Below are positions 1 to 43,291 of a DNA stretch of 43,291 nt, piece after piece. The notes beneath the pieces were generated by a model. The model made no database searches. It worked only from the letters and a program-made list of their open reading frames with translations, and was not told the origin of the DNA. How positions within the stretch are numbered: the first letter of the stretch is position 1; each line of letters starts with the position of its first letter. Made by a program: the position numbers and the translations under genes. Source of the stretch: a virus; the IMG/VR virus record IMGVR_UViG_3300042547_000645, positions 1-43,291 of that record, one strand, 5' to 3'.

Positions 1-127
1 AGGAGAATCCACGGCTGAACGAGAACCACGCCGAGTTTATTGCGAACATGGCGAACAGCCTAGAGCTGCCGAAGGTTCCGGTCCGCACATACGCCAACTA
101 CCTGAACAGCGCTGGAAAACCGGGCGC
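1..127. repeat. Terminal direct repeat, copy 1 (contig circularisation overlap)
   Basis: These 127 bases are identical to 43165-43291. The replication gene begun at 42624 continues in frame through the joint, so the two ends are the same locus read twice and the molecule is a closed circle of 43,164 bp. An overlap of exactly 127 fits a common assembler k-mer length, so it should not be read as a biological terminal redundancy. Confidence 0.95.
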
Positions 128-15772: not shown

Positions 15773-18090
15773 AAAAGATTTGTTATTGGTTATTGGTTGT
15801 TGGTTGTTGTGGATTGGCCTCTGCTGCTCAGCGGTTCGATACCATTTCTCGGTCACAAATGATTCCGACGACTCAAGATGTGGCGCAGGTTTGCGGTGAT
15901 CTGTCGAATCTATCAAACCGGACTGATCGGATTGAGACCCGTACCAACGACTGGAACACGGCTTTTGGCTGGGGCAACCACGCGGGGCTGTACCTTGGCT
16001 TGAGCGCATGGGGAACCGCGAGCAACGATCTATGGCAGGCGATTGGCAACCGGCTTGAAACGTCGGTGTTTACCGGCTGGACGAATAGCCAACACTCGAT
16101 CAACACGAACTATTCTGCGCGGATCACCGAGCTTGAAGACCGCCCGGTGAGTGATACCAATCTGGCGGCGATTGTTACGCAGGCGACGAATGATATTGCC
16201 GGACTAAAATCCGGAACCAGCACATGGAACAGCGTAACCGGCAAGGTGGATCAGACGGATGCGATCTATACCAACACGGCGGCGCAGGCTTCAGCGGCCT
16301 TTGGATGGGGCAATCATGCCTTGTCCGGGTATCTGACATCGGCACCTCCGCAGACGGTAACTAGCGTGAACGGTTCGACCGGCGCGGTGGTTATCACGGC
16401 GGCATCAATCGGCGCTGCCACGGGTACGCCGCTCTACGTCCAAAACTTTGACTACGGCGCGATCACGAATCCGCCGAACCTTGCAGTCTACGCCACGACT
16501 GGCTCGGTCGCTGCTGTCAGCAATATCGCCGCCGCCGCGCAGGCCACGGCGAGCAGTAACACCACGGAACTGTCCGGCAAGCATCCGCTTGAAAACCAAC
16601 GCCTTTCAACTACAAATAAACCTACGCTGGCGGGGTTGACTATTTCCGAAACGGTAAGCACAAAAGGTACAATTAGCGGCACAAACTCAGGGGCTTTCGC
16701 TGGCGAGTATTCTTACGCTGGAACGGACGAAACATACGGCCAGTATTTCACAAACAGCGCGGGTAAGGTTTTGTGGACGGATAACGGCTACAATTATACA
16801 ACCGGATGGACTCTCGGTGAGGCTGTTGGTTCGGTAACGTATTTTTATGATGGCGGGTGGCAGGATACTAACTATGAGCCTGTTGACATTGTTCTGACCG
16901 GAACGCCTTTTTACGGAGTTGGTGGAGATGTGTCTACGGCTGGAGATGTGTCTACGGCTAGAGATGTTTTAGCAGGACGTAACATCTTAATGACAAATGG
17001 CGCGGCCTCGTTGACCTATACTTACGACTCACGAAATCTAGGCGGCAATACCATTAAAATAGCGGGTAATGAACCATGTGCTGTGAATTTTGGGTTTGTA
17101 GATATTGGCAGGAATTTCTCTGGGGCGGACTTAAGCATCTTCGCTGGCGGGCCATTGGATGTTACGACGGCGGCGAATGGACAGATCGGATCAATATCCT
17201 ACACAGGAGGCGCAAGTTCAGAAAAAGCCACGGCAAATATTGAATATTCGATGGAAAACACCTTGGCGTTATCGTTCGTCGAGCTCGCAGTGCCATCTTT
17301 ATTTAATCTAACTTCATGCGGGCAAAACGATATAAATGCGGCGACCTACAAAGGGATGCAGTATTCCGCCAGCACGATGTTTTCATGCTTCGATCTTGTT
17401 AAAGCGGGAAACTGGGGAAACACAAACTACAACGCAATTACGAGTATATCCGACGCTCAAGCCTGCATCCTCGGCGGCTTCATGCATACGGCTGACGGCG
17501 TTAATGCGGATGCCAAGCGAACTATTTCAGGAAGTCGTGGATCGATCTTCTTTACGTATGAATCCGGAACGGCCTCCGAGTTTACTTCATCTGGTTCTCT
17601 AGCTGTCGGCTCGTCGTTAACAAATACCCACAATTTTTCGACCACGCTTGGAAGCGGAATAACCAGTCTTGAGGAAAATGCAGTTCACGCAAGAAAGTTC
17701 ATCGCCACGAGCGGTGGGACATCTACAACCAACAATGTTTTCCAGTTCGGTGCAAACTCATGGATATTCGTTTCTGGCACCAATTTAATGTTCCGCACTT
17801 TAATCCCAACAGATAACTCGTTTACTGTCACGGTAGCCCCAGCTGCCAGTTTTACAAACGTATACCGGTCTGCCGGGGTTGATTCGGGGAAAACCTACTA
17901 TACAAATTCGACAGGCAAATCGGCATGGAGCACCGACGAAAGATGGGAGCTTGGTAGTTCTCTAAATTCTCCCGTGTACTATCTGTCCGGCTCACAGTGG
18001 AAAGCAGTTTCGAATGATGCAAATGTAACCATCACTGTAACTGGAACCATGATCTCAACGGCAAATCCAAAGACAACACAACTCAACTAA
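15769..18090 (+). CDS. Tail fibre protein with N-terminal signal peptide
   Basis: 773 aa. The N-terminus KKICYWLLVVGCCGLASAAQ looks like a Sec signal with cleavage after ASA. Its hydrophobic core is encoded by a five-unit heptad array. The body contains two GWGNHA repeats (about residues 64 and 180), PPQTVTSVNGSTGAVVITAASIGA, a standard fibre-shaft motif, and long Ser/Thr/Gly/Asn-rich beta-structure, as in trimeric fibres that bind host surface glycans. A 18-base tandem duplication (16924-16959) gives GDVSTAGDVSTA. The fibre role is clear; the secretion signal is unusual. Confidence 0.8.
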   Translation: MKKICYWLLVVGCCGLASAAQRFDTISRSQMIPTTQDVAQVCGDLSNLSNRTDRIETRTNDWNTAFGWGNHAGLYLGLSAWGTASNDLWQAIGNRLETSVFTGWTNSQHSINTNYSARITELEDRPVSDTNLAAIVTQATNDIAGLKSGTSTWNSVTGKVDQTDAIYTNTAAQASAAFGWGNHALSGYLTSAPPQTVTSVNGSTGAVVITAASIGAATGTPLYVQNFDYGAITNPPNLAVYATTGSVAAVSNIAAAAQATASSNTTELSGKHPLENQRLSTTNKPTLAGLTISETVSTKGTISGTNSGAFAGEYSYAGTDETYGQYFTNSAGKVLWTDNGYNYTTGWTLGEAVGSVTYFYDGGWQDTNYEPVDIVLTGTPFYGVGGDVSTAGDVSTARDVLAGRNILMTNGAASLTYTYDSRNLGGNTIKIAGNEPCAVNFGFVDIGRNFSGADLSIFAGGPLDVTTAANGQIGSISYTGGASSEKATANIEYSMENTLALSFVELAVPSLFNLTSCGQNDINAATYKGMQYSASTMFSCFDLVKAGNWGNTNYNAITSISDAQACILGGFMHTADGVNADAKRTISGSRGSIFFTYESGTASEFTSSGSLAVGSSLTNTHNFSTTLGSGITSLEENAVHARKFIATSGGTSTTNNVFQFGANSWIFVSGTNLMFRTLIPTDNSFTVTVAPAASFTNVYRSAGVDSGKTYYTNSTGKSAWSTDERWELGSSLNSPVYYLSGSQWKAVSNDANVTITVTGTMISTANPKTTQLN
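15783..15817 (+). repeat. Heptad array encoding the signal-peptide core, 5 units (TTATTGG type)
   Basis: TTATTGG twice, TTGTTGG, TTGTTGT and GGATTGG in phase. Translated, they give the hydrophobic run YWLLVVGCCGL of the tail fibre leader. The complement CCAACAA matches the ACAACCA array in the portal gene. Confidence 0.9.
16924..16959 (+). repeat. 18-bp tandem duplication in the tail fibre gene
   Basis: Two identical 18-base units (GGAGATGTGTCTACGGCT) in direct tandem, followed by a partial third. In frame; adds six residues. Confidence 0.9.
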
Positions 18091-25856: not shown

Positions 25857-28800
25857 ATGGCCTTTGATCCCGACGCCTATCTCGCAGAAACAGACACGGC
25901 GGTGATGGATGCACCGGCTTTTGATCCGGATGCCTACCTCGCACAGAAGCCGGAGCCGACGGATCGGACGAATCCGACGGATGTTTCCGGCTTTGATCCT
26001 GATGCTTATTTGGCTCAGAAGCCGGAGCCTGTCGCCCCTGCTCCGGTGGCGGATGAGAAGCCATTCTTCCGTGCCGGTGATACCGCGGCGGCAATATGGG
26101 ATGCTGTGAAGGGGTTGGGGTCTACCGCTCCGGCGGCGTTCTATCAGCTTACCGAAGGGATGGAACGGCCTGACCGCTATTCAGATCCTGCAAAGGCGGC
26201 ATTCGCTAAGGCGGATGAGTACAATCAGGCGATGCAGGCCAAGACGGAGGCCAACCGTGCGGCAGGGACGAGCAGTTCCGTTGGCGAGTCAGTCAGAGCG
26301 GCTGGGCCAAGCCTTGGGTTTTCAGCTGGATCAATGGCCGCATCAATACCGGGTCGTATCGCTGGCGCTAAGGCTGGCGCTATGGTCGGCGGCGCTGTTG
26401 GCGGTCTAATTATTCCTGCTCCTGACCCTGCTGATATTGTTACTGTTCCGGCTGGTGCGGCAATCGGCGGATTGATTGGTGCGTTCTCTGGTGGCGTTGG
26501 CACTGGCGGAGCTGCGGCCTACCGGATGGCGGGTGCGCAGTTCCTGAATGAAGCCTTTAAGAACATTGAAGCGGAGTCCGTTCGCAAGAGCGGCCGTCCG
26601 ATGAATGAGGCTGAAAGGCAGTCGGCTTATGAAGCGCTGCTTCCGATCGCCAAGAACACGGCTATTTGGGAGGCCGGTCCTGAAGCGGTCGGCAATGCGG
26701 TAACGCTTGGCGCTGGTAAAATCATGTTCGGACTAGGCAGACCGCTCGCGTCCAAGTTTGCCGGAACACTGGCCGGCAAGGCCGCGGCTGGGGCTGGTAG
26801 TTTGGCGGTGGAGCTTGGCGGTGAAACCATTACGCAGGTAGCCCAGAAGGCAGATCAGCAGAAGCTGGATGCGATTGTCCAGGGCAGAAGTCCTGACGGA
26901 ATAGCGGCGGACTGGAGCAAGGGCGGCGTGGTTGAGGCCTTTAAGGAGGTTGCCCCGCAGACGCTGGCGATGATGGGTCTGTTCGGCGGTGCCGGTGCAG
27001 TGGCTGGTGCAATTAATAAGCAGATCAACCCCCAGCAACCAGCAACCAGCAGCCAGCAACCCTCCACCGTTCCCGTTCCAGAAGAAATGAAGGCATGGCT
27101 GGATCAGCAGGCCGGAAGACCGACAACAGAGGTCAGAGGTCAGGGGTCAGAAGTCAGTGGACAGTTTAATCGGCAGCCGTCAGACCTTCGCCTCGCAACT
27201 GATATTGAGATTTTACAGAGCGAAGATCGAAAAGCCGGAAGACCGACAGAGGTTACGGATCAGCAGAATTTAAATAACCCCCAACAGACCCCCGCCGTAT
27301 CCTTTCCGGCGGGAGAACAGCAAGCCGAGCAGGCGGCTATCGCACCGGAGGCTCCTGCCATAGCTCCGGGTGCACTTCCAGCGGTCATGGGTCAGGGGTC
27401 AGAGGTCAGCGGTTCTGCCACAATCGCCAATCCCCAATCCTCAATCCCCAATCCTCAATCCTCTGCCGACAACATCTACATGCGTATGCCGATTGAACGG
27501 GTGCAGGCGGATGCAGCGCTGGGGAACAAGCGGGCGCTTGATGCGCTGGCGATTCGGATGACGGAAGCCGGAAGACCGATGCCAGAGGTCAGAGGTCAGG
27601 GGTCAGGGGTTAGTGTGAAGGCCGCGACGAATCAACGCCCTGTTTTTTCAGATGATTTTTACGGAAGGATTGAGTCTGCTGGCTATACGGCGGCAACGAT
27701 TGGTTCGTCAGTCAGGGGAAATCCTCATTCTGAGACAAGCGCACAAGGTGCCGCATGGCGGCGCGGATTTGAAAAGTTCCAAGGTTCGGAACAAAATGTT
27801 CCAGCGGATGAAACACGTCAACCCGCAACCCTGAACCCTGAACCCTCCAACATCTACATGCGTATGCCGATTGAGCGGGTGCAGGCGGATGCAGCGCTGG
27901 GGAACAAGAGGGCGCTTGATGCGCTGGCGATTCGGATGACGGAAGCCGGAAGACCGATGACCGAAGAGGCGCGGCCACCGTCCGCACCCACAGTGGAAGC
28001 TGGACAGCCGCAGATTGCCGATGTTATAAACAGAGAGGTAAACAATGAGAAGAATAACAGATCAGGAATTGCAGGATTTGTCGAAGCGCAAGCCAGCGGG
28101 GGCGGCTTACCTGCGCCGCTACCTGCGAAGAGAAGCAGAGCAAAAGGTCAGCCAGACCAACCCCGCACCTTCAAAGAAAACCAACTCGTAAAGATCAATT
28201 CTAACCAGCAGTACATCCGCAGCGGTGACAGCTGGGTGATCGCCCGCGACGGGCGCATTATTCTCGACTCCAAAGGCAAGCGCAAGATTGTGCGCCGTCC
28301 TGAATTGATTGCCCAAATCGAGAACCGTCCGGGCTGGCAGGAACTGAAGGCTCAGGTTAAGCAGCAAGAGGGCGAGGTTCGTGCGCGCACCCGTCAGGCT
28401 GATGATGAAGTCCGCAAGTTCTACGATAGCGACCCGGCGCTGGCGCGAGTGTTGCGTGAGGGCGGAATCTTAATGCCGGAGCGCGAGCCGTTCGCAACAT
28501 ACCCCGATGAGTACGCCGCGATCCCGCGAGACTTCAGGGGCAAAGTCCACGCCGCAACAAAGCAACGTTTTGGTTTGCCGCTTGACCAGCACGCCGACCA
28601 GGTTGGAATGGACGACGAATCACTGCGCCGCAAGATGGAGGCAGCGGCTGAACAGGCTGATAAGATTCGTGAAGCGGTAATGGCCGGGCTTCCGGTTCCG
28701 GTGCAGGTTGATATGCGAGGGAATGATTTGGCCGCCGAGGCTATGCTGGCCGACATGCAGCAGGGTATCCGTCCGCCGCAGGATGCGATTGATGATTTCA

Positions 28801-31800
28801 AGGATATTTATAACGATCTGCTGAAGCTCTACGGGATCGATGAGAAGTCGCTCCGCAATCAGGACGAGCTTGCCGATGAGGATTATTATCCCGTCGAGGC
28901 GCTGGCCGAGCGCGCCGCGCTGGAGGATGAGGCCGCAGCGGCAGAGGTCAGGAGTCAGGAGTCAGGGGTCAGGGGTCAGGAGCCAGTGGTCAGGGATCAG
29001 CCCGTTGCTCCGGCTGGAGAAATGTTTGCTGACGTTCCTTTTAATCTGATGGGCGATGCTCCGGTTGAGCAGGCCCCTTTAAAACCAAAGACGCAGGAGA
29101 CCCCTGCCCTGTTCTCGAATCGGGAACTGATGGGCCGCAACTATGACGACCTGGACAACAAGGGGATTCAGGATTTGCAGGTGCAGGCGACCCGCGAGAA
29201 TGTGGATTTGACGAATGTTCCAAACTCCGCCCCGCGTATCCGTGAGGCGATCCGCGCCGCGCGGCGCTCCGATGCTCCCCGTAATCCCGTGGCCGGCGAG
29301 ATCCAGGCCGGAGCGGATGAACTTTTTGGGACGGGGGCTGGGAAGTTCCGGACGGAAGGCGCAGCTTTCTATTCCCCGCTGGCGCGTGCCGTCGAAGGAT
29401 TTAAACAGGATACCTTCTCGGTTGAGCAGCTAAAAGGAATGGTGAACAACGCTCCCGGCGTGAAGGCCGAGGAGCTTGTCGATCTTGGGTTTACCGACTG
29501 GCTGGATGGGATACAGGGCAAAGTCACGAAGGCTCAGGCGTTGGAGTTTATCAGGAACGGCGGGCCGCAGATTCAGGAAGTGGTGAAGGGGTTCGGCGCG
29601 GCTTCTACCGCGTTCGATGGGTGGAGTGATTCAGAAATCCGCGAGCATCTAGTAGAGAATATGAACGCTGATCCGGATGAAGTTCAGCCAATGAATAGAG
29701 CGGAGTTAATCGCGTGGGCTGATCGTAACGCCGATCCTTTCGATGCGTCTGGCGCTCCTAGTGATCCAAAATTCAGCCAGTACCAGCTTCCGGGAGGCGA
29801 GAACTACCGCGAGGTGTTGCTGACGCTGCCGGACACACAAAGAAAGCTGACAAAAGACGAATTGATAGAACTTGGTTCTCTAGCGAAGCAGCGTTTAGCT
29901 GCACGGATTCAAGCACAGCCGCAGCTGACATCAGAGCAAGAAGACCGCTATCAGGAGTTGGCTAAAATAGACGAACGTGTAACTAAATTGTTTCAATCAT
30001 CCCACTGGGACGAGCCGAACGTCTTGGCGCACGTCCGGTTGAACGACCGCACCGGGCCAAACGGCGAAAAGATTCTGTTCATCGAAGAGATCCAGAGCGA
30101 CTGGCATCAGGCGGGAAGGAAGGGAGGCTATAAGGGTGAAAAGAAAATTGATGCGAGCGGATGGACGGCATCGCTTAAAAATGTAAACGGAACCGAGGGG
30201 TGGGACGTTAGGGATGCTAACGGTTCTCATGTAAGCGAAGTCGCAAAAGATTGGAAGGGAGAAGTTCGCACAGCGGAGGATGCTATCCGCATTTCTTCTG
30301 CCGCAGAACAAAAGCGAGCAGACCTTGAGGGGTCTGTTCCTTCAGCTCCCTTCAAGAAGTCGTGGGCAATGCTGGCATTTAAGACAATTCTGCGGGATGC
30401 GATTGCCAATGGCTATGATTCTATATCGTGGACTCCCGGCGAGGTGCAGGCAGAGCGGTACGATTTGAGTAAGCAGATCAAGAGCCTGTCGGCGTGGAAA
30501 GTGGAAAGCGGGCAGTGGGAAGTTAATTTTGTCGATAACAACGGAACAAGCCACGGACAAGGGCCGCTTCCCGAATCAGCACTGGCTGATACTGTCGGGA
30601 AGGATTTGGCGCAGAAGATTATTGCGGACGGCGGCGGAGAGTATGCCGGTCTCGACCTCAAAGTCGGCGGCGAAGGGATGAAAGGCTTCTACGACCAGAT
30701 TCTGCCGAAGGAAATCCAGAAGTATGTCGGCAAGATGGGCGGGAAAGTGGGGACGGGAGAGGTTCAATCGTCCGAGAGGGTGTCAAAATACTACGTATTA
30801 GCAGAAGGTTTTGGACGCGCAGATCGCCAAGAGTTCGATACGCATGAAGAAGCCTATCGGCATTTGAAATCCATTCAGGCGGCAGAAGAAGAAATTACAG
30901 GAAAAACTAATGGCTATCGCGTTGAGAAGGCCATTTCAAACACGTTGGCTCCGTCTATTAAACAGGTTTGGAGCCTGCCCATCACCGACGCAATGCGCAT
31001 GAAGATTGGCGATGAAGGCCAGTCTCTTTACCGTGCTGGCGATCCGTCGGATGGGCTGACGTTTAACGAGTTCACGGAGAAGCAGAGGAATGAATCCATT
31101 CTCCTGCTGAAGCGTATCCTGGGCGACAATGTGCAGGTGCGGACGCTGGCAGAGAAGATTATGACGCCAGATGGTCAGGCCGCGCTGGGTAAGTATCAGC
31201 AGGGCTGGATTGATTTGGTGGATGGCCGTGCCGATGTGAAAGATACCGCCGCGCATGAGGCTGTTCATGCTGCCGTGGATTTGTTCCTCTCCCCTGCGGA
31301 GCGGTCGCGTCTGCTGGATGCGGTCGGCGGTAACGAAGAGTTGCTGGCTGAGAATTTTGTGCAGTATGCGAAGGATCGTTCCGGCGCGTTCGGTAAGGTG
31401 CGGATCGTGGCTGAGAAGCTGATCCGGTTTATCAAGGCGTTCGTTACAAGCCGTCAAAGTATGGGTGTTCCGTCCGATGCCGTTATTAAATTCTACGAGG
31501 ATTTGATGATGGGGAGCATGAAGAATCGCAGCGGACAGTCTGCCGGCGGGGCTGCAAGTTTCCGCGTTGATCCTAACGAAGAGAATTTCAAGAAGGTTCA
31601 ATCTCTCTACGAAGCGGCGCAGGGTGAGACCGATCCCGCGAAGCTGGAGGCGATCCGGCAGGAGTTCTATAAGATTCGGGATCTGGCGGACGCGGTTAAT
31701 GGCCGGACGGCTCCGGCGGTTTCGGCCAATACTCCGGTGAAGCGTAAGCAGTTGGCGGATATGTCCCGCGAGGAGCTGCAATCCGAAGCGAAGGCGCAGG

Positions 31801-33998
31801 GGCTTTCCCCTGCCGGTACGGTGGATGTGATCCGTAAGCGGCTTTTGAATGCGCAGGACGGTGAGCGGGTGCGCGCCCGGTCGTTCCTGCAAACGGTTCA
31901 ATCCGAAACAGGTTTGCCGAAGGAGTTGCTGGATCGGCTGGCGTCGGTTGATCCGCAGACCTATCAGCAGATGCGCTCCGGCGAAATGGTGAAGGCGTTC
32001 CGTGCGTGGCTCGATCAGGGCGCGGCGAATGTTTCCCGTGCCGATGCGTTTGTGATGAGCAATGAGAAGGCTGACGGGGTGAAGGGTACGCTGGCTGCCG
32101 CGCTGATTGACAGGTATAATTCAGAGGATAACTGGGAAGCAGCAAGCCGGATCATTGACCATATCGACCAGCTGGCACGTGAAAACGGTCAGTTTAATCA
32201 GGCTTTGTCTTTCGTGGCGGCTCATTCCGGCAAGAGTTTTATGCGGTCGGTGGATAAGTTCCTGCAAAAGTACAAGGTTTCTATCCCGGATGATGTGCTG
32301 GAGAGTATCCGGCAGGATTATATCAAGGCAACCCGCATTGATGATGAGGCGGCGCGGATGGATGCCGTGTCCGCTGTGATTGAGCGGGTGGCCGCCCTCG
32401 CCCCGACGAAGTGGAATGACTGGATCGGCGCCTATCGCTACACGAATATGCTTTCCAACCCGCGCAGCCATGAGCGCAATGTGTGGGGTAACTTTTTCCA
32501 GACGTTTGTGGCTCGTCCGCTGGCTCTGGCCGGTCAAGGCCGGTTGATTGGCGCGGTGCAGTATGAAGCGTCGGCTTTCAAGTCGCTGCCTAATGCGGTT
32601 CAGGCGTTCAAGGATGCTTGGAACAGCGGATCGACCGGCAATCGCTGGTTTGAATCCATGAACAGCAACATGAGCAAGTTTGAGAGTGAACGGATGCGCC
32701 AGGGGGCGCAGGCAGTTCCTGCCCGTAAGGCATTGCTGGTGGTGGGTCGCCTTCTCGAAGCTCAGGATAAGTTTTTCTCTGCCATGATTGCGCAGGGTGA
32801 AACCTACCGGCTGGTGCAGAAGGGCGTGACTCCGGATCAGGCGGTTGCGCTGGGCAATAAGCTGGCGGATGATCTGCTGTACCGCGAGAAGCTGGGCAAC
32901 GATATGGGCGACAAGTCCAAGGCGTTCGGCGTCCGGGCTCTGGATGCGGTGGGCTATCAGATGGAACAGCTTCGCAAGGCTCCGTTTATCGGCAAGCCGG
33001 CGGGGTGGTTCCTGCCATTCATCCGGACTCCCATCAACGTCGGCAAGCGTATGGTTGAGTTTTCCCCGCTTGGTTTTGTGCGCAATCCAACGGCTGGAAA
33101 GATGACGGCTGAACAGGCCGGACGCGCAGTTGCTGGGTCGGCGGTGATGATGGCCGGTGCGATGCTGGCGCTGGCAGGTCAGACAACCGGCGCCCCGCCG
33201 AAGGATAAGGATGAGCGCAAGCTGTGGTATGCGAGCGGTCGGCGTCCGTGGTCGGTTCTCCTTGGTGGAAAGTGGATTCCGATGTGGTATTTTGGATCGT
33301 TCGCCGGTGCGCTGGCGCTTCCAGCTGCTGCGCGGGATACCTGGGCGGATGATCCGGCCACTGCCGGCGCTCCGGTACACAAGAAGATGGTGAGCATTAT
33401 CGCCAACATGAGCGCGTTCTACGGATCGCAGACTCCTTTGCAGGGTGTCGGTACGTTCCTTGATATTGCAATGGGTAAGAGTGAATACACTACCGCCGGA
33501 TCGCTGGCGTTCAATGTCGGCCAGTTCGTTCCGGCCAGTGGGTTCCTGCGCTGGGCAAATCAGCTGGTGCTCGATCCCGTGTACCGGCGCGGCGGATCAT
33601 TCGAGGAAGGTTTCAAGAAGGATTATCCGTTCCTCAGCACGTCAACCCGCGCGGTGATGGGGCCTGAAATTAAGTCTCCATCCGGGCGAGTACTCCAGCC
33701 GGCTGAACCGGTGGTGCGTAAGACGGGATCAACCCTGCTTCCGTACGATGTGGATACGGTAAACCCTGAAATGGATGCGCGCTGGCAGGATCGGAATGAG
33801 ATTTTGAAGAATCGCGGACGGAACAATGAGGCGCTTGAGCAGGATATTCGGCGTGCGCTGCGCGGTGATATGCACCCTGACCAGGTGATTGATACGATTA
33901 AGCGTATGTCCGGCGGCAGCGTAGCCCTACGGGAAGAACGCGCGCGACTGATGCAGAAGGCCAAGGCGCGGTTTAAGGATGCGGGGCTGGAGAAGTAA
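25857..33998 (+). CDS. Giant internal virion protein, 2713 aa, with embedded metallopeptidase-like motif
   Basis: Begins with three copies of FDPDAYLA (residues 3-10, 22-29, 46-53). Gly-rich hydrophobic segments (about 165-225 and 370-385) could insert in membranes. Residues about 390-740 are a disordered region packed with heptad arrays and a duplicated 37-aa unit. A block typical of large polyvalent phage proteins follows (NDRTGPNGEKILFIEEIQSD near 1395, and LRDAIANGYDSISWTPGEVQ near 1510). HEAVH at about 1800-1804, with EELLAENF downstream, fits a zinc peptidase. A SAP-like segment lies near 1965-2000, and TNMLSNPRSHERNVWGNFF near 2200 opens a helical C-terminus. It is likely carried in the head and ejected with the DNA. 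Its 3' end overlaps the integrase gene by 26 bases. Confidence 0.8.
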   Translation: MAFDPDAYLAETDTAVMDAPAFDPDAYLAQKPEPTDRTNPTDVSGFDPDAYLAQKPEPVAPAPVADEKPFFRAGDTAAAIWDAVKGLGSTAPAAFYQLTEGMERPDRYSDPAKAAFAKADEYNQAMQAKTEANRAAGTSSSVGESVRAAGPSLGFSAGSMAASIPGRIAGAKAGAMVGGAVGGLIIPAPDPADIVTVPAGAAIGGLIGAFSGGVGTGGAAAYRMAGAQFLNEAFKNIEAESVRKSGRPMNEAERQSAYEALLPIAKNTAIWEAGPEAVGNAVTLGAGKIMFGLGRPLASKFAGTLAGKAAAGAGSLAVELGGETITQVAQKADQQKLDAIVQGRSPDGIAADWSKGGVVEAFKEVAPQTLAMMGLFGGAGAVAGAINKQINPQQPATSSQQPSTVPVPEEMKAWLDQQAGRPTTEVRGQGSEVSGQFNRQPSDLRLATDIEILQSEDRKAGRPTEVTDQQNLNNPQQTPAVSFPAGEQQAEQAAIAPEAPAIAPGALPAVMGQGSEVSGSATIANPQSSIPNPQSSADNIYMRMPIERVQADAALGNKRALDALAIRMTEAGRPMPEVRGQGSGVSVKAATNQRPVFSDDFYGRIESAGYTAATIGSSVRGNPHSETSAQGAAWRRGFEKFQGSEQNVPADETRQPATLNPEPSNIYMRMPIERVQADAALGNKRALDALAIRMTEAGRPMTEEARPPSAPTVEAGQPQIADVINREVNNEKNNRSGIAGFVEAQASGGGLPAPLPAKRSRAKGQPDQPRTFKENQLVKINSNQQYIRSGDSWVIARDGRIILDSKGKRKIVRRPELIAQIENRPGWQELKAQVKQQEGEVRARTRQADDEVRKFYDSDPALARVLREGGILMPEREPFATYPDEYAAIPRDFRGKVHAATKQRFGLPLDQHADQVGMDDESLRRKMEAAAEQADKIREAVMAGLPVPVQVDMRGNDLAAEAMLADMQQGIRPPQDAIDDFKDIYNDLLKLYGIDEKSLRNQDELADEDYYPVEALAERAALEDEAAAAEVRSQESGVRGQEPVVRDQPVAPAGEMFADVPFNLMGDAPVEQAPLKPKTQETPALFSNRELMGRNYDDLDNKGIQDLQVQATRENVDLTNVPNSAPRIREAIRAARRSDAPRNPVAGEIQAGADELFGTGAGKFRTEGAAFYSPLARAVEGFKQDTFSVEQLKGMVNNAPGVKAEELVDLGFTDWLDGIQGKVTKAQALEFIRNGGPQIQEVVKGFGAASTAFDGWSDSEIREHLVENMNADPDEVQPMNRAELIAWADRNADPFDASGAPSDPKFSQYQLPGGENYREVLLTLPDTQRKLTKDELIELGSLAKQRLAARIQAQPQLTSEQEDRYQELAKIDERVTKLFQSSHWDEPNVLAHVRLNDRTGPNGEKILFIEEIQSDWHQAGRKGGYKGEKKIDASGWTASLKNVNGTEGWDVRDANGSHVSEVAKDWKGEVRTAEDAIRISSAAEQKRADLEGSVPSAPFKKSWAMLAFKTILRDAIANGYDSISWTPGEVQAERYDLSKQIKSLSAWKVESGQWEVNFVDNNGTSHGQGPLPESALADTVGKDLAQKIIADGGGEYAGLDLKVGGEGMKGFYDQILPKEIQKYVGKMGGKVGTGEVQSSERVSKYYVLAEGFGRADRQEFDTHEEAYRHLKSIQAAEEEITGKTNGYRVEKAISNTLAPSIKQVWSLPITDAMRMKIGDEGQSLYRAGDPSDGLTFNEFTEKQRNESILLLKRILGDNVQVRTLAEKIMTPDGQAALGKYQQGWIDLVDGRADVKDTAAHEAVHAAVDLFLSPAERSRLLDAVGGNEELLAENFVQYAKDRSGAFGKVRIVAEKLIRFIKAFVTSRQSMGVPSDAVIKFYEDLMMGSMKNRSGQSAGGAASFRVDPNEENFKKVQSLYEAAQGETDPAKLEAIRQEFYKIRDLADAVNGRTAPAVSANTPVKRKQLADMSREELQSEAKAQGLSPAGTVDVIRKRLLNAQDGERVRARSFLQTVQSETGLPKELLDRLASVDPQTYQQMRSGEMVKAFRAWLDQGAANVSRADAFVMSNEKADGVKGTLAAALIDRYNSEDNWEAASRIIDHIDQLARENGQFNQALSFVAAHSGKSFMRSVDKFLQKYKVSIPDDVLESIRQDYIKATRIDDEAARMDAVSAVIERVAALAPTKWNDWIGAYRYTNMLSNPRSHERNVWGNFFQTFVARPLALAGQGRLIGAVQYEASAFKSLPNAVQAFKDAWNSGSTGNRWFESMNSNMSKFESERMRQGAQAVPARKALLVVGRLLEAQDKFFSAMIAQGETYRLVQKGVTPDQAVALGNKLADDLLYREKLGNDMGDKSKAFGVRALDAVGYQMEQLRKAPFIGKPAGWFLPFIRTPINVGKRMVEFSPLGFVRNPTAGKMTAEQAGRAVAGSAVMMAGAMLALAGQTTGAPPKDKDERKLWYASGRRPWSVLLGGKWIPMWYFGSFAGALALPAAARDTWADDPATAGAPVHKKMVSIIANMSAFYGSQTPLQGVGTFLDIAMGKSEYTTAGSLAFNVGQFVPASGFLRWANQLVLDPVYRRGGSFEEGFKKDYPFLSTSTRAVMGPEIKSPSGRVLQPAEPVVRKTGSTLLPYDVDTVNPEMDARWQDRNEILKNRGRNNEALEQDIRRALRGDMHPDQVIDTIKRMSGGSVALREERARLMQKAKARFKDAGLEK
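27032..27059 (+). repeat. Heptad array, 4 units (CCAGCAA type)
   Basis: CCAGCAA four times (one CCAGCAG), in phase within the giant protein gene, encoding a Gln/Pro/Ser-rich linker. Confidence 0.9.
27128..27162 (+). repeat. Heptad array, 5 units (AGAGGTC type)
   Basis: Five in-phase units of consensus AGRRGTC, encoding EVRGQGSEVSGQ. Confidence 0.9.
27380..27414 (+). repeat. Heptad array, 5 units (AGGGGTC type)
   Basis: Units AGCGGTC, ATGGGTC, AGGGGTC, AGAGGTC, AGCGGTT in phase; coding in the giant protein gene. Confidence 0.85.
27421..27462 (+). repeat. Heptad array, 6 units (CAATCCT/CAATCCC)
   Basis: Six perfect-phase units, differing only in the last two bases. Translated it gives NPQSSIPNPQSS. 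The unit is close to the CCCCAAT-type heptamers of cyanobacterial STRR repeats. Confidence 0.95.
27471..27581 (+). repeat. 111-bp duplicated unit, copy 1
   Basis: Encodes NIYMRMPIERVQADAALGNK and following residues to EAGRPM (37 aa). It is nearly identical to 27849-27959. Heptad arrays abut both ends. Confidence 0.95.
27584..27611 (+). repeat. Heptad array, 4 units (AGAGGTC type)
   Basis: AGAGGTC twice, AGGGGTC, AGGGGTT; begins three bases after the 111-bp unit. Confidence 0.9.
27820..27847 (+). repeat. Heptad array, 4 units (AACCCTG type)
   Basis: AACCCGC, AACCCTG twice, AACCCTC; ends one base before the second 111-bp unit. Confidence 0.9.
27849..27959 (+). repeat. 111-bp duplicated unit, copy 2
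   Basis: Matches 27471-27581 except for two or three bases that I could see. Confidence 0.95.
28943..28998 (+). repeat. Longest heptad array, 8 units (AGGAGTC/AGGGGTC)
   Basis: Eight in-phase units of consensus AGNRRYC. Because three heptads make 21 bases, the peptide repeats every seven residues (EVRSQES, GVRGQEP, VVRDQPV). Confidence 0.95.
30494..30521 (+). repeat. Heptad array, 4 units (GTGGAAA type)
   Basis: GTGGAAA twice, GCGGGCA, GTGGGAA. It lies in the folded polyvalent-type domain of the giant protein, just after the conserved ERYDLS segment. Confidence 0.75.
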
Positions 33999-35118
33999 AC
34001 ATTCTCAGCTCGGCAAGATCGTCGTCAACTGGAAACGGTTCGTCAACCTTAGGGATTTTGGCATAGTGGTTGAGCGTTACCTGGTAGGAGCTGTGGCCAA
34101 GCCAGTCGTGAGCGCGATCGAGCCCGTATTTTAAACGCCAGAATGATCCTCTCATGCGGCGCAGAACATACACGCTTTTCGATCCGTCGGGGATGAAGTC
34201 GCGCATCCATTTGGAAAGTTCCCGTTTTAGAAGGTTGTGCCTGGCAGTCGGCGTTCCGGCCAGTATGCGGGGGTCTCCGCCGAACTCTAGCAGGTCGTCC
34301 ATGACCTTCTGCGGCACCGGAATTTCGCGGGAGGTCTTCGGCTTGTAGCCTTCGGCCTCGCGCTGTTTGATATGCAGCCAGTAGATTCCCTTCTGATCCG
34401 TGCTGAACCAGTGCCGGCAGACTTCCTGCGCCTCTTCGTTGCGCAGTCCAAGGTCAAAGCAGAGAACGAAGGCCAAATAGAGCTGCTTGTTTTCGCGCTC
34501 GCGCAGTTTGCGTCCGGCTTCGATCATCCGGGTCATGGTTTCGCACGATGGCAGAGCGTTATCCACTTTGTCCGGCGTAATGATTTTGGCGGTAAGGAAT
34601 CGGTCGAAGGCTTTCGGGTGGACAATATCGTGCAGATAATCCATGCGCTTTGAGAAGATGCTGCGAGCCTGGCGTATCATGCTTTCAATGCTGCGCTTGC
34701 ATCCGGGTGATCCGTCGGCTGCCAGCATCGTGTCGGCATACTTCTTGAGAAGTTCAACGGTCAGCTCGGACATGCAGGCGGTTTCCGGCGCGGCAAATCC
34801 GGCCACGGTCATAATCTTTTTCAGGTTTCCGACGTTGCGGTGGGCGGTATCTTCTGCCGGAGATCCGCGGCGCAGGACTTCGGCGGTATAAAGGGCAATC
34901 AGTTCTCCAATGGTTGGAAAGGCAGCCTTTGAGCGGGTGCCGTATAGAGCGCCCCAGTCTTCTGTCTCTGCGGCCTTCTGCTTTACCTTCATCCGTTCCT
35001 TGGCCACGCGCAGATCACCGGTCTGGAGGCTCTCGGCGTAGCGATTTCCGGCAATGGTTTGAGTCCAGTACCATACTCCCTTGCGATTCGTTAGATTTTT
35101 TTCTTTCTTCGGAGCCAT
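33973..35118 (-). CDS. int: Tyrosine-family site-specific integrase
   Basis: 381 aa. The C-terminal catalytic domain has Arg226 (FDLGLRNEEA), Lys261 in the beta-hairpin (YKPKTSREIPVP), a second Arg320 in SVYVLRRMRG, His342 in DWLGHSS and the nucleophile Tyr352 in LNHYAKI. The HxxR box reads YVLR, with Tyr317 where His is usual. The N-terminal 60 residues form a probable arm-binding domain, and residues about 65-190 the core-binding domain. It should recombine attP (35329-35366) with a host tRNA-Lys gene. The gene is convergent with the giant protein gene and overlaps its end. Confidence 0.92.
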   Translation of the reverse strand: MAPKKEKNLTNRKGVWYWTQTIAGNRYAESLQTGDLRVAKERMKVKQKAAETEDWGALYGTRSKAAFPTIGELIALYTAEVLRRGSPAEDTAHRNVGNLKKIMTVAGFAAPETACMSELTVELLKKYADTMLAADGSPGCKRSIESMIRQARSIFSKRMDYLHDIVHPKAFDRFLTAKIITPDKVDNALPSCETMTRMIEAGRKLRERENKQLYLAFVLCFDLGLRNEEAQEVCRHWFSTDQKGIYWLHIKQREAEGYKPKTSREIPVPQKVMDDLLEFGGDPRILAGTPTARHNLLKRELSKWMRDFIPDGSKSVYVLRRMRGSFWRLKYGLDRAHDWLGHSSYQVTLNHYAKIPKVDEPFPVDDDLAELRMFTSPAPHP

Positions 35119-35328
35119 GATTCGCCTACCTTCCTGCGTCCTTTGATCATTGAAAACTTAATAAACCCTCTGTTGCTGGTAGCACGTGATTTTTTGATGT
35201 GCCTTGTGTTGTAACTTCATGTTGTTGGCTGTTTGTATTCCCTTGTGCATCGTTGTGCAAGCTGAAAGATTATAAACACCATTAAAAGCCAGTAATTTAA
35301 TGGGATTTGTTAAAGTTTTCTTTATGTT

Positions 35329-35366
35329 GGGCCGGTAGCTCAGTTGGTAGAGCATTTGACTTTTAA
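35329..35366 (+). other. attP: attP core: 5' half of a tRNA-Lys(TTT) gene
   Basis: These 38 bases read as tRNA positions 1-38: acceptor strand GGGCCGG, T8, D-arm with AGTTGGTA loop, anticodon stem 5' strand TTTGA and loop CTTTTAA with anticodon TTT at 35362-35364. From base 35367 the sequence (GCCCATG) no longer fits a tRNA and no 3' half exists in the window. It lies 210 bases from the integrase start, so it is the expected attP identity segment for integration into the host tRNA-Lys gene, with crossover in or near the anticodon loop. Confidence 0.85.
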
Positions 35367-35374
35367 GCCCATGT

Positions 35375-35442
35375 TTAAACACAAATTCCCCTTATTTATT
35401 TCCCGTTTTTGTGGCGTGTTGTGCCGTTTGCTGTGTGTTTAA
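35375..35442. promoter_or_regulatory. Inverted repeat beside attP, possible integrase/excisionase arm sites
   Basis: TTAAACACA at 35375-35383 and TGTGTTTAA at 35434-35442 are exact complements of nine bases, 50 bases apart, beginning nine bases from the tRNA half. The rest of 35119-35460 (about 340 bases) holds the attP core, short direct repeats (TTGTGCA near 35249 and 35260) and no credible gene. Confidence 0.4.
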
Positions 35443-35460
35443 GCATTTGTTTTTGTTACA

Positions 35461-35705: not shown

Positions 35706-36140
35706 TTATGTTGTTATTCCGAACAGGTGGTTTCCGATGGTTTGCTTGTGTGTCATGCAGGCCGACCAAATCGGGATTACGTTGAGAGTATGGTAGTGCG
35801 TGGCGGTGGTTGTTGGGCGGAATGTTCCAGCCCGCATTTGGCTTTCTATGCCTTCTAGGAATGCAAGGATGTCGGCCTCGGTTTGGTTGGACGGCTTGGG
35901 TTTGATGAATCCGGCGTTGTTGCATGAGAATTGTTTCGGGGCCAGACAAACCGCGTTGAGGGATTTTCCGTCCCGCTGCGCCCTGTTCCAGATCACCGAG
36001 GCGACGGCCAGAATTCCTTCGCGGCCTTCTCCTCTGGCTTCATGCCATATTGTTCCGGCGATTATTCCCTTGTTCATTTTCGTGCTTCCTTGTACTGCTC
36101 CAGCTGCCAATATGGCAAGCAGGATGATGATTGCGCGCAT
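35706..36140 (-). CDS. SleB/CwlJ-type cell wall hydrolase with signal peptide
   Basis: 144 aa. Signal peptide MRAIIILLAILAAGAVQG, then the Hydrolase_2 (SleB) domain: IIAGTIWHEARGEGREGILAVASVIWNRA with the catalytic Glu at 34, a CLAPKQFSCNN block and the closing HYHTLNVIPIW. Members are lytic transglycosylase-like muramidases of spore cortex or cell wall. Here it is a Sec-exported muralytic enzyme. It is carried in the accessory operon, not in the lysis cassette at 18474-19748, so it may act in host wall remodelling or superinfection control, or be a second endolysin. A leader hairpin precedes it. Confidence 0.85.
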   Translation of the reverse strand: MRAIIILLAILAAGAVQGSTKMNKGIIAGTIWHEARGEGREGILAVASVIWNRAQRDGKSLNAVCLAPKQFSCNNAGFIKPKPSNQTEADILAFLEGIESQMRAGTFRPTTTATHYHTLNVIPIWSACMTHKQTIGNHLFGITT

Positions 36141-37744: not shown

Positions 37745-38491
37745 TTAAATTTTCTGGTTTAAGATCCAGCGCTCGGCGCTGTACTTGTCGAGGCATTCGC
37801 CGGTTTCTATGTCGAGCGCTCCGGCTTCGGGCGGCATGTGCTGCGGGCGGCCGTAGGCGGCGGCGTGGTTTGGGTGGGTTGCCATGTGGTTTACAAAGTG
37901 CCAACGGAGCGCCCAGGGGCTTGCGGCGGTGGTAATGGCGCCAAGGTTTAACGGCTGATCTGCGCGCTTTACAGTGACGCGCGCGATGTAGTCGCGGCGG
38001 GTGCCGCTGGTGAATGCGTCTTTTATGCTGCAAACGGTTTCCACTTCGCAGCGGATCCCTGCGCGCTCCAGGCTGTCCACGATCCGCGCGGCGGCGTAGG
38101 TTTTCCAAAGCATGGCGTCGGCGCTTTTCTTGCAGCTTTCCGCGACGTTTACCCGGATCTTTTGGATCCGGCCGCGCTTGGTGCCGGCTGTGACTTTTAC
38201 GCGCTGGCGCATAAAAGGCCGTTCATCGTGGAAGCGTTCGACGTGCATTTCGTCGCCGTCGTCCATGCTCCAGCGCTTGGCGCGTTTGGTTTTTCCTGTG
38301 CTCCGGTTAAGCTCTGGCAGCTCGTTTAGTTTGCGGGCGCCTTCGGTCCAGGTGAAGCGGCGCGCTTCTATCTGTTCGCGGTCGGCGCCGATAAACCGGG
38401 CGCGGTCGGGGGTTAGCGTTTCGCGGTCTGGCGCTTGGCGGTAAAGCGCCGCCAGGCTTGGAAAATTATATTCTTTTGCGGTGGTTTTCAT
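37745..38491 (-). CDS. Partner protein of the CobS-like ATPase, 248 aa (DUF7192-like)
   Basis: AAGGGG lies before the ATG, ten bases after the ATPase stop, so the two are a tight pair. The block DGDEMHVERFHDERPFMRQR, then RIQKIRVNVAESCKKSADAMLWKTYAAARIVDSLERAGIRCEV, resembles phage proteins paired with MoxR/CobS ATPases that have a VWA-like alpha-beta core. I see no clear MIDAS (DxSxS) site, since the corresponding strand reads VNVAES. Function in the phage is unknown; such pairs usually remodel a protein complex. Confidence 0.55.
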   Translation of the reverse strand: MKTTAKEYNFPSLAALYRQAPDRETLTPDRARFIGADREQIEARRFTWTEGARKLNELPELNRSTGKTKRAKRWSMDDGDEMHVERFHDERPFMRQRVKVTAGTKRGRIQKIRVNVAESCKKSADAMLWKTYAAARIVDSLERAGIRCEVETVCSIKDAFTSGTRRDYIARVTVKRADQPLNLGAITTAASPWALRWHFVNHMATHPNHAAAYGRPQHMPPEAGALDIETGECLDKYSAERWILNQKI

Positions 38492-38500
38492 GGTGTCCCC

Positions 38501-39637
38501 TTAGAAACAAAGTGCTTTTTCGTCGTCGGTCCAGTGGCCAATGATCCCGGCTTTCCAGTCCAGGCCGGCGGCTTTCAGTTTGTCGGCGGCGATAATTGCG
38601 CGGGTGCTGATTATGCGGTCAATGCCGTTTGTTTTTACCGTGGCGCGCAGCGCCTGGCAGAATGCGACCACTTGCGGATCAAACTGGCTTTCGTATTCTG
38701 CGGAGTAGTCAACCTTAACAAAAGCGCCGGCGAAGCGGTCGAGCGTGGCGGCGTCGAGCTGGTTGTTTCCGATGTATTGGCGATCGGCTCCGGTGCCGGT
38801 GGTGTTAGCCGTGGCTATGATTACGCAATCAGGATTCCGGATGACGTGGCCGGTACTGGTTTCAAGCTCGTTATTAGCAAGCAGGGCGTTACATACGGCG
38901 GCAACGTCGGGCTCAAGCATCGGCATTTCATCAAGCACGATGATTCCAGGTTGTGCAATGGCGCGGCTGATTGCGCTGGCGCGCGGTTCCGGATATTTGA
39001 AGCCGGTTATTTCTGCGGGGCTGGTTCCGGCGCTGCATGACAGGATCGTGCAGGGCAGGTTTGCTTCCTCGGCAAGCTGGCGGCAGATCGTGGTTTTTCC
39101 GGTTCCGGCGGGACCATATAGCCAGATATTACGAAGTCCGGCGCCGATGATTGCGCGAAGGTCTGCCGGTGCGCCGGTTGTGGCCGGTGCCGGCTTGGCT
39201 TTCGGGGCCTTCGGCGCTTCTTCGTGTTCGGGCTCGTCGTGGTGTTCTTCGTGCTGCTCGTCGTGTTCCGGATCCTGGCGCGGAGCGCGTTTGGCTTTTG
39301 GTGCTGGCGCTTTTTCCGGTGCTTTATCTTCGGCCGGTTTTTCTTCTGGCAGTGGTAGCTCTTGCTGGTTGTCGTGGCCGGTGCTTTTCTTTTTGGCATA
39401 GAATGGCTGCCGGATGCTCTGGCCGTCCCAGTCGGGGAAGAAAGGGCGCACAAGGCGAACGGCGGCGCCGCGCTGGTCTTCGGTGCGTCCTTCTTTGAGG
39501 AAAGTCAAACAGGCGTCGATTATTTCGCCGGCCTGGCTGATCGTTGGCTCTGGCCGGTTTTCCGGTTCCCAAAATTTTAAACCGGTTAAGCGGAAGAGAT
39601 ACCCGCCTTGTTTGTGGCTTAGTGCTTGTTGTGACAT
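38501..39637 (-). CDS. AAA+ ATPase, MoxR/CobS-like
   Basis: 378 aa and the first gene of the minus-strand operon. A charged Glu/His/Lys-rich linker (about residues 95-160) precedes the AAA+ core: Walker A YGPAGTGKTT, Walker B GIIVLDEMP, sensor region VIIATANTTGTGADRQYIGNNQ and LDAATLDRFAGAFVKVDY. The proteins closest in layout are CobS-type chelatase ATPases and MoxR ATPases. In phages these occur with a VWA-like partner, here 37745-38491. AAAGGAG before the ATG follows leader hairpin E. Confidence 0.88.
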   Translation of the reverse strand: MSQQALSHKQGGYLFRLTGLKFWEPENRPEPTISQAGEIIDACLTFLKEGRTEDQRGAAVRLVRPFFPDWDGQSIRQPFYAKKKSTGHDNQQELPLPEEKPAEDKAPEKAPAPKAKRAPRQDPEHDEQHEEHHDEPEHEEAPKAPKAKPAPATTGAPADLRAIIGAGLRNIWLYGPAGTGKTTICRQLAEEANLPCTILSCSAGTSPAEITGFKYPEPRASAISRAIAQPGIIVLDEMPMLEPDVAAVCNALLANNELETSTGHVIRNPDCVIIATANTTGTGADRQYIGNNQLDAATLDRFAGAFVKVDYSAEYESQFDPQVVAFCQALRATVKTNGIDRIISTRAIIAADKLKAAGLDWKAGIIGHWTDDEKALCF

Positions 39638-40608: not shown

Positions 40609-40874
40609 TTAATTTTTTAAATCTTCAGCCTTTATGCTTTCGCGGTCTTTTGTCACGGGGTGGCGCAGTGGTAGCGCGTCGGGCTCATGCTCCGAAGGTC
40701 GCCGGTTCAATTCCGGCCCCCGTTACCACATGGACAGATCCGGAAACAGGCGAGCCGTGCCGATGGGCTACCCGCAGAGAGTGCGCGCTTATCCTGGCCG
40801 CTTGTTTTTTGGGGTGCTGCATGTTTGCGGCGGCGGTTTTTGCGCTGGGCTGGTTTTTAGGGGGTGCGAAATGA
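40605..40874 (+). CDS. Possible small membrane protein, frame runs through the tRNA gene
   Basis: The ATG at 40605 overlaps the regulator stop (ATGA), and the 89-codon frame passes through the whole tRNA-Met gene. The tRNA-derived middle (AVVARRAHAPKVAGSIPAPV) is typical of shadow translation. The end, TDPETGEPCRWATRRECALI and a membrane segment LAACFLGCCMFAAAVFALGWF, looks genuine but has no ATG, GTG or TTG of its own after the tRNA. Either a real gene lost its start to the tRNA, or the product is spurious. Confidence 0.35.
   Translation: MINFLNLQPLCFRGLLSRGGAVVARRAHAPKVAGSIPAPVTTWTDPETGEPCRWATRRECALILAACFLGCCMFAAAVFALGWFLGGAK
40654..40728 (+). tRNA. tRNA-Met(CAT), initiator-like
   Basis: 75 nt with encoded CCA. 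Acceptor CACGGGG / CCCCGTT leaves positions 1 and 72 as C and T, an unpaired end that is characteristic of bacterial initiator tRNA. D-stem GCGC/GCGC; anticodon stem TCGGG/TCCGA with loop CTCATGC and anticodon CAT at 40686-40688; T-stem GCCGG/CCGGC. GTCGGGCTCAT matches E. coli tRNA-fMet. Deviations: G37 and C38 instead of A37 A38, and G31-T39 instead of a third G-C pair. Confidence 0.85.
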
Positions 40875-42627: not shown

Positions 42628-43291
42628 AGATGCCTTACATCAAGTTTTATATCCGCGATTGGCAGTCTGATCCGGAGCTGAGGATGTGTTCTTTGGGGGC
42701 TAGAGGTCTGTGGATCGAAATGCTTTGCATCATGCAGAACGCAAAACGCAGGGGACACCTTGAGTCACCCACGGGGGAACCTATAAACGACGATATGCTT
42801 TCTCGTTTAATCGGCACCGATAAAGGTGACCTTTATACGTACCGCGACGAACTGATTAAGCTAGGGGTCACATCAATCGAAGCTGAAACTGGCGTAATGT
42901 ATTGCCGGAGAATGGTTAAAGATGCTGTTAAATCTGAAAAATGCGCCAACGCCGCACGGAAGGGCGGAGGAAACCCCTCTCTCCGCACCTCTCTCCCAGG
43001 ATATAATATACAGAAACCAGAGACCAGAAACCATATAAGTTTAAAGGCCACCTTTAAAGGTGCCTCTACTGCTTCTCTCTCGATGGTTGAAGAAGTTTTA
43101 AACTGCCGTCCAGAGTTTGCCGGACTCGACCCCGCCCCGTTCTTCCAGGCGATCCACGTTGCGAAGGAGAATCCACGGCTGAACGAGAACCACGCCGAGT
43201 TTATTGCGAACATGGCGAACAGCCTAGAGCTGCCGAAGGTTCCGGTCCGCACATACGCCAACTACCTGAACAGCGCTGGAAAACCGGGCGC
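42624..43291 (+). CDS. Replication initiator / replisome organiser, 5' part (continues at 1-191)
   Basis: 243 aa across the circular joint. The N-terminus KMPYIKFYIRDWQSDPELRMCSLGARGLWIEMLCIMQNA is the winged-helix start of many phage O-like replication initiators. The middle (about residues 110-150) is a Lys/Thr/Ser-rich linker encoded by AT-rich DNA with a heptad run. The C-terminal half is a separate helical domain. Such proteins bind the phage origin and load the helicase; the DnaB-type helicase lies two genes later. Two AAAGGT palindromes inside the gene (42820-42836, 43041-43064) could be the origin. Confidence 0.8.
   Translation, partial: MKMPYIKFYIRDWQSDPELRMCSLGARGLWIEMLCIMQNAKRRGHLESPTGEPINDDMLSRLIGTDKGDLYTYRDELIKLGVTSIEAETGVMYCRRMVKDAVKSEKCANAARKGGGNPSLRTSLPGYNIQKPETRNHISLKATFKGASTASLSMVEEVLNCRPEFAGLDPAPFFQAIHVAKENPRLNENHAEFIANMANSLELPKVPVRTYANYLNSAGKPG
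42820..42836. promoter_or_regulatory. Palindrome ATAAAGGT-G-ACCTTTAT inside the initiator gene
   Basis: Eight-base arms around one central base, perfect. Related half-sites lie at 43041-43064. In lambdoid phages the initiator binds repeats within its own gene, so this is a candidate initiator-binding site. Confidence 0.45.
43011..43064. promoter_or_regulatory. AT-rich heptads and AAAGGT half-sites, candidate origin
   Basis: Three CAGAAAC/CAGAGAC heptads (43011-43031), then ATATAAGTTTAAAGG and the 12-base palindrome ACCTTTAAAGGT (43050-43061). The half-site AAAGG(T) occurs three times here and twice at 42820-42836. It is a possible iteron cluster and unwinding region. Confidence 0.4.
43165..43291. 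repeat. Terminal direct repeat, copy 2 (contig circularisation overlap)
   Basis: Identical to 1-127; see that entry. Confidence 0.95.

What the first reader, a model, noticed from the sequence alone, without database searches (positions are those of the whole stretch)
35329..35366. attP carries the 5' half, not the 3' half, of tRNA-Lys
Most phages that integrate in tRNA genes carry the 3' part, so the host keeps its own promoter. Here the identity covers tRNA positions 1-38, ending in the anticodon loop. After integration the rebuilt tRNA would take its upstream sequence from the phage (35119-35328), so the phage must supply the promoter for a tRNA that is probably essential. The lack of a 3' half also shows that the assembled molecule is the excised circular form.
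Basis: partly seen in the sequence, partly recalled or inferred. Interest (0 to 1): 0.65.

Follow-up and report, generated by a model that had tools for sequence, protein, structure and literature searches.

The report
Phage attP carrying tRNA-Lys 5' half
This circular virus of Kiritimatiellota/Verrucomicrobia-type bacteria carries the front half of a lysine tRNA gene as its integration site, so after insertion the host's tRNA is read from virus-supplied upstream DNA; integrated relatives show this arrangement directly, and it is a rare but already known mode of integration.

Summary
Window 35329-35366 is 38/38 identical to positions 1-38 of tRNA-Lys(TTT). It stops exactly at the end of the anticodon loop, and no 3' half exists in the window. 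An exact 127-bp terminal repeat makes the record a circle, and a divergent tyrosine integrase lies 210 bp away, so this is attP. Twelve genomes, mostly Kiritimatiellota, hold intact tRNA-Lys(TTT) genes with the same 38 bases; the gene is apparently single-copy in the six checked. No integrated copy of this phage was found. Homologous integrases in related genomes do show the predicted junctions. A 44.6-kb prophage in tRNA-Arg(TCT) has an intact tRNA whose 5' end faces the integrase, and a displaced nt 1-39 copy at the far end. Elements in tRNA-Lys(CTT) and tRNA-Pro(GGG) have both junctions, on separate contigs. The host promoter stays with the displaced half; rebuilt tRNAs are preceded by phage DNA. 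New here: the window also carries about 33 nt of tRNA leader resembling one candidate host's. Phage promoter activity is inferred, not shown. The kind is known: Islander counts 159 5'-fragment against 3760 3'-fragment islands, and archaeal pTN3 is an experimental precedent.

The parts
35329..35366 (+). attP identity block = tRNA-Lys(TTT) positions 1-38
   Evidence: 38/38 identical to intact tRNA-Lys(TTT) at 12 genome loci
35360..35366 (+). anticodon loop CTTTTAA, inferred strand-exchange (overlap) region
   Evidence: identity to host ends exactly here; in integrated relatives it ends 0-4 nt past the loop; exact cleavage sites inferred
35296..35328 (+). leader resembling the native tRNA-Lys leader of G006/L013; would become the 5' leader of the rebuilt tRNA
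   Evidence: similarity not significant further upstream
35273..35301 (+). candidate phage-supplied promoter TAAACA-N17-TTTAAT for the rebuilt tRNA
   Evidence: best sigma-70-like pair upstream, but not above chance (p=0.6) and not reported by the consensus scan; same distance from the tRNA as TTGCCT-N17-TTTCAT in L013; inferred
33973..35118 (-). tyrosine integrase (381 aa), divergent from the tRNA half
   Evidence: PHROG integrase E=1.3e-15; R226, K261, R320, H342, Y352 in conserved columns, Y317 at the usual His position
35119..35328 (+). integrase-proximal attP arm; upstream of the rebuilt tRNA after integration
   Evidence: geometry matches attR of the G206:C63 and G289 elements
35367..35460 (+). 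distal attP arm, with weak TTGTG-type repeats that could be integrase arm sites
   Evidence: p about 0.05; suggestive only
1..127 (.). left copy of exact 127-bp terminal repeat (circular record)
43165..43291 (.). right copy of exact 127-bp terminal repeat

Best explanation
This is the attP of a temperate phage whose tyrosine integrase recombines at the anticodon loop of the host tRNA-Lys(TTT) gene, with the identity block on the integrase side of the crossover. SHOWN here: the block is tRNA nt 1-38; the molecule is circular; genomes with the intact target exist; relatives with homologous integrases are integrated with an intact tRNA whose 5' end faces phage DNA and a displaced 5' half carrying the host promoter at the other end. 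INFERRED: the window's integrase does the same in a Kiritimatiellota host related to G006; after integration the tRNA consists of phage leader + phage 5' half + host 3' half and is transcribed from a promoter in phage DNA 35119-35328, best guess TAAACA-N17-TTTAAT joined to a host-like leader; the host promoter is left driving a useless 5' fragment.
For: 38/38 match ending at the loop edge. 127-bp terminal repeat. Divergent integrase 210 bp away. Relatives: (1) G206:C63, tRNA-Arg(TCT) intact at 15325-15401 with its 5' end facing the integrase at 15615, and nt 1-39 at 100% at 60022-60060. (2) G206, lone 5' half of tRNA-Lys(CTT) plus integrase plus phage genes similar to the window's on C87, and intact tRNA-Lys(CTT) with phage-like sequence upstream on C82. 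(3) G289, tRNA-Pro(GGG) intact facing the integrase on C113 and displaced half on C122. (4) G033, attP-like 5' half of tRNA-Leu(TAG) next to the integrase on C81 and intact gene on C3. The family-type promoter (TTGYCA-like, N17, A/T-rich -10) precedes displaced halves but not rebuilt tRNAs. Leader similarity to L013/G006. Apparent single-copy target.
Against: No integrated copy of this phage was found. The integrated relatives share only 26-30% integrase identity with the window, and two of the three have their junctions on separate contigs of a draft genome. Promoter scoring of 35119-35328 is not above chance, although many native host tRNA promoters in the same test are not either.
Confidence: 0.93

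Rival explanations
1. It is attP, but the phage supplies no dedicated promoter: the rebuilt tRNA is made by read-through of phage transcripts, or the lysogen tolerates reduced tRNA-Lys(TTT).
For: No sigma-70 site passes the consensus scan; the best candidate is not better than shuffles. In G206:C82 the rebuilt tRNA lies just downstream of a co-oriented giant phage gene.
Against: tRNA-Lys(TTT) appears single-copy in candidate hosts, so strong loss should be costly. In the window the neighbouring integrase is divergent, so no phage gene obviously reads into the tRNA. A host-like leader is preserved.
Confidence: 0.2
2. The window is an integrated junction (attL), with host DNA on the left of the tRNA half, and the phage is an ordinary 3'-type or integrates elsewhere.
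For: A lone 5' half is also what a displaced attL fragment looks like (as in G206:C87).
Against: 127-bp terminal repeat means circularity; an integrase gene lies directly left of the half; no 3' half anywhere in the window.
Confidence: 0.02
3. The tRNA half is a regulatory or decoy element unrelated to integration.
For: tRNA-like fragments with other roles exist (general knowledge).
Against: Ends exactly at the anticodon loop, next to an integrase, and equivalent halves of four other tRNAs lie with homologous integrases, with the matching intact gene in the same genome.
Confidence: 0.02
4. The leader similarity to G006 is convergence of an AT-rich segment, or G006's tRNA-Lys leader is itself a scar from a former prophage, rather than a host sequence captured by the phage.
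For: Only one of 24 distinct host leaders shows it; beyond 34 nt it vanishes.
Against: Score 24 against a shuffle maximum of 12 in 1000; the G006 locus is an intact xseA-tRNA-rnr region with no phage genes (gene names from my reading of the translations).
Confidence: 0.3

Closest known systems
Bacterial islands with a 5' tDNA fragment in Islander (PMC4383910): 159 islands, against 3760 with a 3' fragment
   Same: Element carries the 5' part of a tRNA gene and displaces the host 5' part; tyrosine integrase; the anticodon is one of the main subsites.
   Different: Islander covers complete genomes; this phage and its Kiritimatiellota/Verrucomicrobia-type relatives come mostly from metagenome assemblies. 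A partial copy of the host tRNA leader in attP is not a listed feature there.
Archaeal pTN3-type integration in tRNA-Leu (PMC5495485; reviewed in PMC8371274)
   Same: 41-bp attP/attB identity reaching the anticodon; tRNA restored but separated from its original promoter.
   Different: Archaeal plasmid; attP lies inside the integrase gene, which is split on integration, and the tRNA is said to be expressed from the integrase promoter. Here attP lies outside a divergent integrase gene that stays intact.
Ordinary 3'-half tRNA phages at the anticodon loop; in this integrase family G119:C35 (tRNA-Arg ACG) and L107 (tRNA-Thr)
   Same: Homologous integrases, block starting near the anticodon loop.
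   Different: They carry the 3' half, so the host keeps its own promoter.

Membership tests
tRNA-targeting attP of a tyrosine-integrase phage | identity block matches part of a host tRNA gene | tested here: met
   38/38 at 12 genome loci
tRNA-targeting attP of a tyrosine-integrase phage | tyrosine recombinase with catalytic residues near attP | tested here: met
   PHROG integrase E=1.3e-15; R226, K261, R320, H342, Y352, Y317 in place of His
tRNA-targeting attP of a tyrosine-integrase phage | attL/attR of this phage in a host | tested here: inconclusive
   None found in the viral scans, the genome pattern scan or 388 phylum genomes; absence from these collections is not evidence of absence
5'-fragment (5' tDNA) integrative elements | element carries the 5' end; block starts at tRNA nt 1 | tested here: met
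   nt 1-38
5'-fragment (5' tDNA) integrative elements | displaced 5' fragment and intact tRNA bracket the integrated element | tested here: inconclusive
   met for relatives: G206:C63 on one contig; G206 C87/C82 and G289 C122/C113 across contigs; not observed for the window phage itself
5'-fragment (5' tDNA) integrative elements | rebuilt tRNA transcribed from an element promoter | tested here: inconclusive
   host promoter is separated from the rebuilt tRNA in relatives; phage promoter not statistically supported
pTN3-type (attP inside integrase gene) | attP within the integrase ORF, split on integration | tested here: not met
   attP lies 210 bp outside the int ORF

The most novel reading that the evidence does not exclude
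In phages of Kiritimatiellota/Verrucomicrobia-type bacteria, capturing the 5' half of essential tRNA genes, sometimes with part of the host leader, is a recurrent strategy rather than a rare accident, putting a single-copy tRNA under prophage transcriptional control in lysogens; the half carried can switch between close integrases because the anticodon stem-loop is nearly palindromic.
Probability: 0.3. Interest if true: 0.6.

Novelty: new member of a known kind. Interest (0 to 1): 0.42.

Why it matters
If prophages replace the promoter of a single-copy tRNA, lysogeny changes control of a translation component and ties the host to the prophage's upstream DNA. The cases here, with host promoter, phage upstream DNA and both junctions readable, make it testable what such phages must supply and why 3'-half capture is so much commoner. 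Among the 8 homologues classified here 5 are 5'-type, against 4% in Islander (binomial 6e-6); the sample is small, chosen by similarity to a 5'-type integrase and not comparable in taxonomy, so this is a lead only.

Tried and rejected
Integrase and attP searches in phage records and IMG/VR gave no close relative; viral hits to the tRNA pattern were complete tRNA genes, not attP halves. L013 was first suspected to be an attR because its leader resembles the phage's; its ORFs show an intact chromosomal locus. Leader similarity beyond 34 nt was tested and is chance. Promoter scans are inconclusive. A 5'-specific integrase clade is not supported: the tree is poorly resolved, starred branches force at least 2 changes, and one 5' type (G206:C87) groups at 100/99 with a 3' type (L107). 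The upstream neighbours of the G206 displaced halves are not conserved in its family, so a clean two-sided empty site could not be shown; the intact target is conserved in relatives, and for tRNA-Arg(TCT) its downstream side too. G044 has promoter + tRNA-Arg 5' half duplicated 3.8 kb apart without an integrase homologue; left out as an example. G078 has a tRNA-Arg 5' end facing a broken integrase, but its displaced half was not searched. Williams 2002 is not held; its statements are cited through PMC8371274.

Full report
OBSERVATION. Window 35329-35366 is GGGCCGGTAGCTCAGTTGGTAGAGCATTTGACTTTTAA. An exact scan of the GTDB genome contigs for these 38 bases gave 12 loci. Seven carry Kiritimatiellae/Kiritimatiellales/Pontiella titles, two are titled Verrucomicrobia and three are titled Acidobacteria or Candidatus Sulfopaludibacter; in every one the match is the first half of an intact tRNA-Lys(TTT) gene. 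Host genes go on with TCA (mostly TCAAAGGGTC); the window goes on with GCCCATG, so identity ends at the last base of the 7-nt anticodon loop. No complete tRNA is called there and no second piece is in the window. The record has an exact 127-bp terminal repeat, so it is a circle of 43,164 bp and both sides of the half are phage. The three matches outside the group show that the tRNA alone does not fix the host.

INTEGRASE. ORF 33973-35118 (-) matches PHROG integrase profiles (1.3e-15), though no Pfam model reaches threshold. R226, K261, R320, H342 and Y352 fall in conserved columns, with Y317 at the usual His position. Its start is 210 bp from the half and it is transcribed away from it.

INTEGRATED RELATIVES. 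No integrated copy of this phage was found. A scan of 388 genomes of the same GTDB phylum found divergent integrase homologues, and their neighbourhoods are the key evidence. (1) G206:C63 carries intact tRNA-Arg(TCT) at 15325-15401 (-), its 5' end facing the integrase at 15615-16772, and a copy of tRNA nt 1-39 (100%) at 60022-60060, which continues as ...CTTCTAA|GCCTGATT instead of ...CTTCTAATCCGA: a 44.6-kb element that displaced the 5' half. (2) G206:C87 has a lone 5' half of tRNA-Lys(CTT) followed by an integrase and phage genes 26-35% identical to the window's. The intact tRNA-Lys(CTT) is on C82, preceded by phage-like genes including a 2151-aa ORF. (3) G289:C113 has intact tRNA-Pro(GGG) with its 5' end facing the integrase, and C122 has the displaced 5' half, identical through the loop plus 4 nt. 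(4) G033:C81 has an integrase and a 5' half of tRNA-Leu(TAG) in the window's geometry, and the intact gene with an identical 5' half is on C3 of the same genome. In each case identity ends 0-4 nt past the anticodon loop, as expected if the loop is the overlap region.

WHO SUPPLIES THE UPSTREAM DNA. In the family of G206 the native tRNA-Lys(CTT) and most tRNA-Arg(TCT) genes have a conserved CTTG(T/C)CA-like box about 35-40 nt upstream, with a -10-like box about 17 nt on. In G206 this box precedes the displaced halves; the rebuilt tRNAs are preceded by unrelated phage DNA. G289 agrees. So the separation of tRNA from its host promoter is directly visible. That the phage DNA holds an active promoter is inference: the consensus scan finds none in the window, and a softer matrix gives TAAACA-N17-TTTAAT (35273-35301) at chance level (p=0.6). 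The same test is also non-significant for many native host tRNA promoters, so it has little power.

LEADER. The 33 nt before the half (35296-35328) resemble the native tRNA-Lys leader of L013/G006 ('uncultured Verrucomicrobia bacterium' MAG) with score 24, against a maximum of 12 in 1000 shuffles; the next best of 24 host leaders scores 6. The similarity stops there. The L013 locus carries chromosomal genes that I read as xseA and rnr on either side of the tRNA, with no phage genes. The simplest reading is that the phage acquired its half, with leader, from a host of this kind; the -10-like TTTAAT aligns with TTTCAT in L013. tRNA-Lys(TTT) appears once, with at most one tRNA-Lys(CTT), in six candidate-host genomes.

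COMPARISON. This arrangement has a name and a count: Islander lists 159 islands with a 5' tDNA fragment against 3760 with a 3' fragment (PMC4383910). A review of archaeal recombinases says bacterial recombinant tRNA genes are with very few exceptions expressed from their original promoter, and that pTN3-like integrases use the 5' half (PMC8371274). [quoted passage not shown] The present phage differs from pTN3 in having attP outside the integrase gene. Integrases of this family also occur with 3' halves (G119:C35 and L107). The tree does not support a 5' clade and puts one 5' type beside a 3' type at 100/99, so polarity seems to change easily. That fits the near-palindromic anticodon stem-loop (inference).

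VERDICT. It is a new member of a rare, known kind, in a poorly studied host group.

Noticed in passing
window 40654-40728 (+): A complete tRNA with anticodon CAT (elongator Met, or Ile if modified), unrelated to the att site; the only intact tRNA in the phage.
   Followed up: no
window 25857-33998 (+): A 2713-aa ORF with no Pfam match; a 2151-aa giant ORF occupies a similar place in the G206:C82 prophage end, without detectable sequence similarity at the threshold used.
   Followed up: partly
window 37745-39637 (-): AAA_5 ATPase (PHROG 'porphyrin biosynthesis', CobS-like) next to a DUF7192 protein; a PF07486 cell wall hydrolase lies at 35706-36140.
   Followed up: no
window 35279-35303: Perfect 8-bp inverted repeat CCATTAAA-N9-TTTAATGG overlapping the candidate tRNA promoter; could be an operator or recombination-factor site.
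   Followed up: no
L133 9151-9227 and 12979-13018 (G044:C9): tRNA-Arg(TCT) promoter plus 5' half duplicated 3.8 kb apart with a glycoside-hydrolase-like gene between and no integrase homologue; possible remnant of a 5'-type element that carried the host promoter.
   Followed up: partly
L107 2789-2833 against G206:C87 60223-60261: Closely grouped integrases carry opposite tRNA halves (3' tRNA-Thr against 5' tRNA-Lys), suggesting easy polarity switching.
   Followed up: partly
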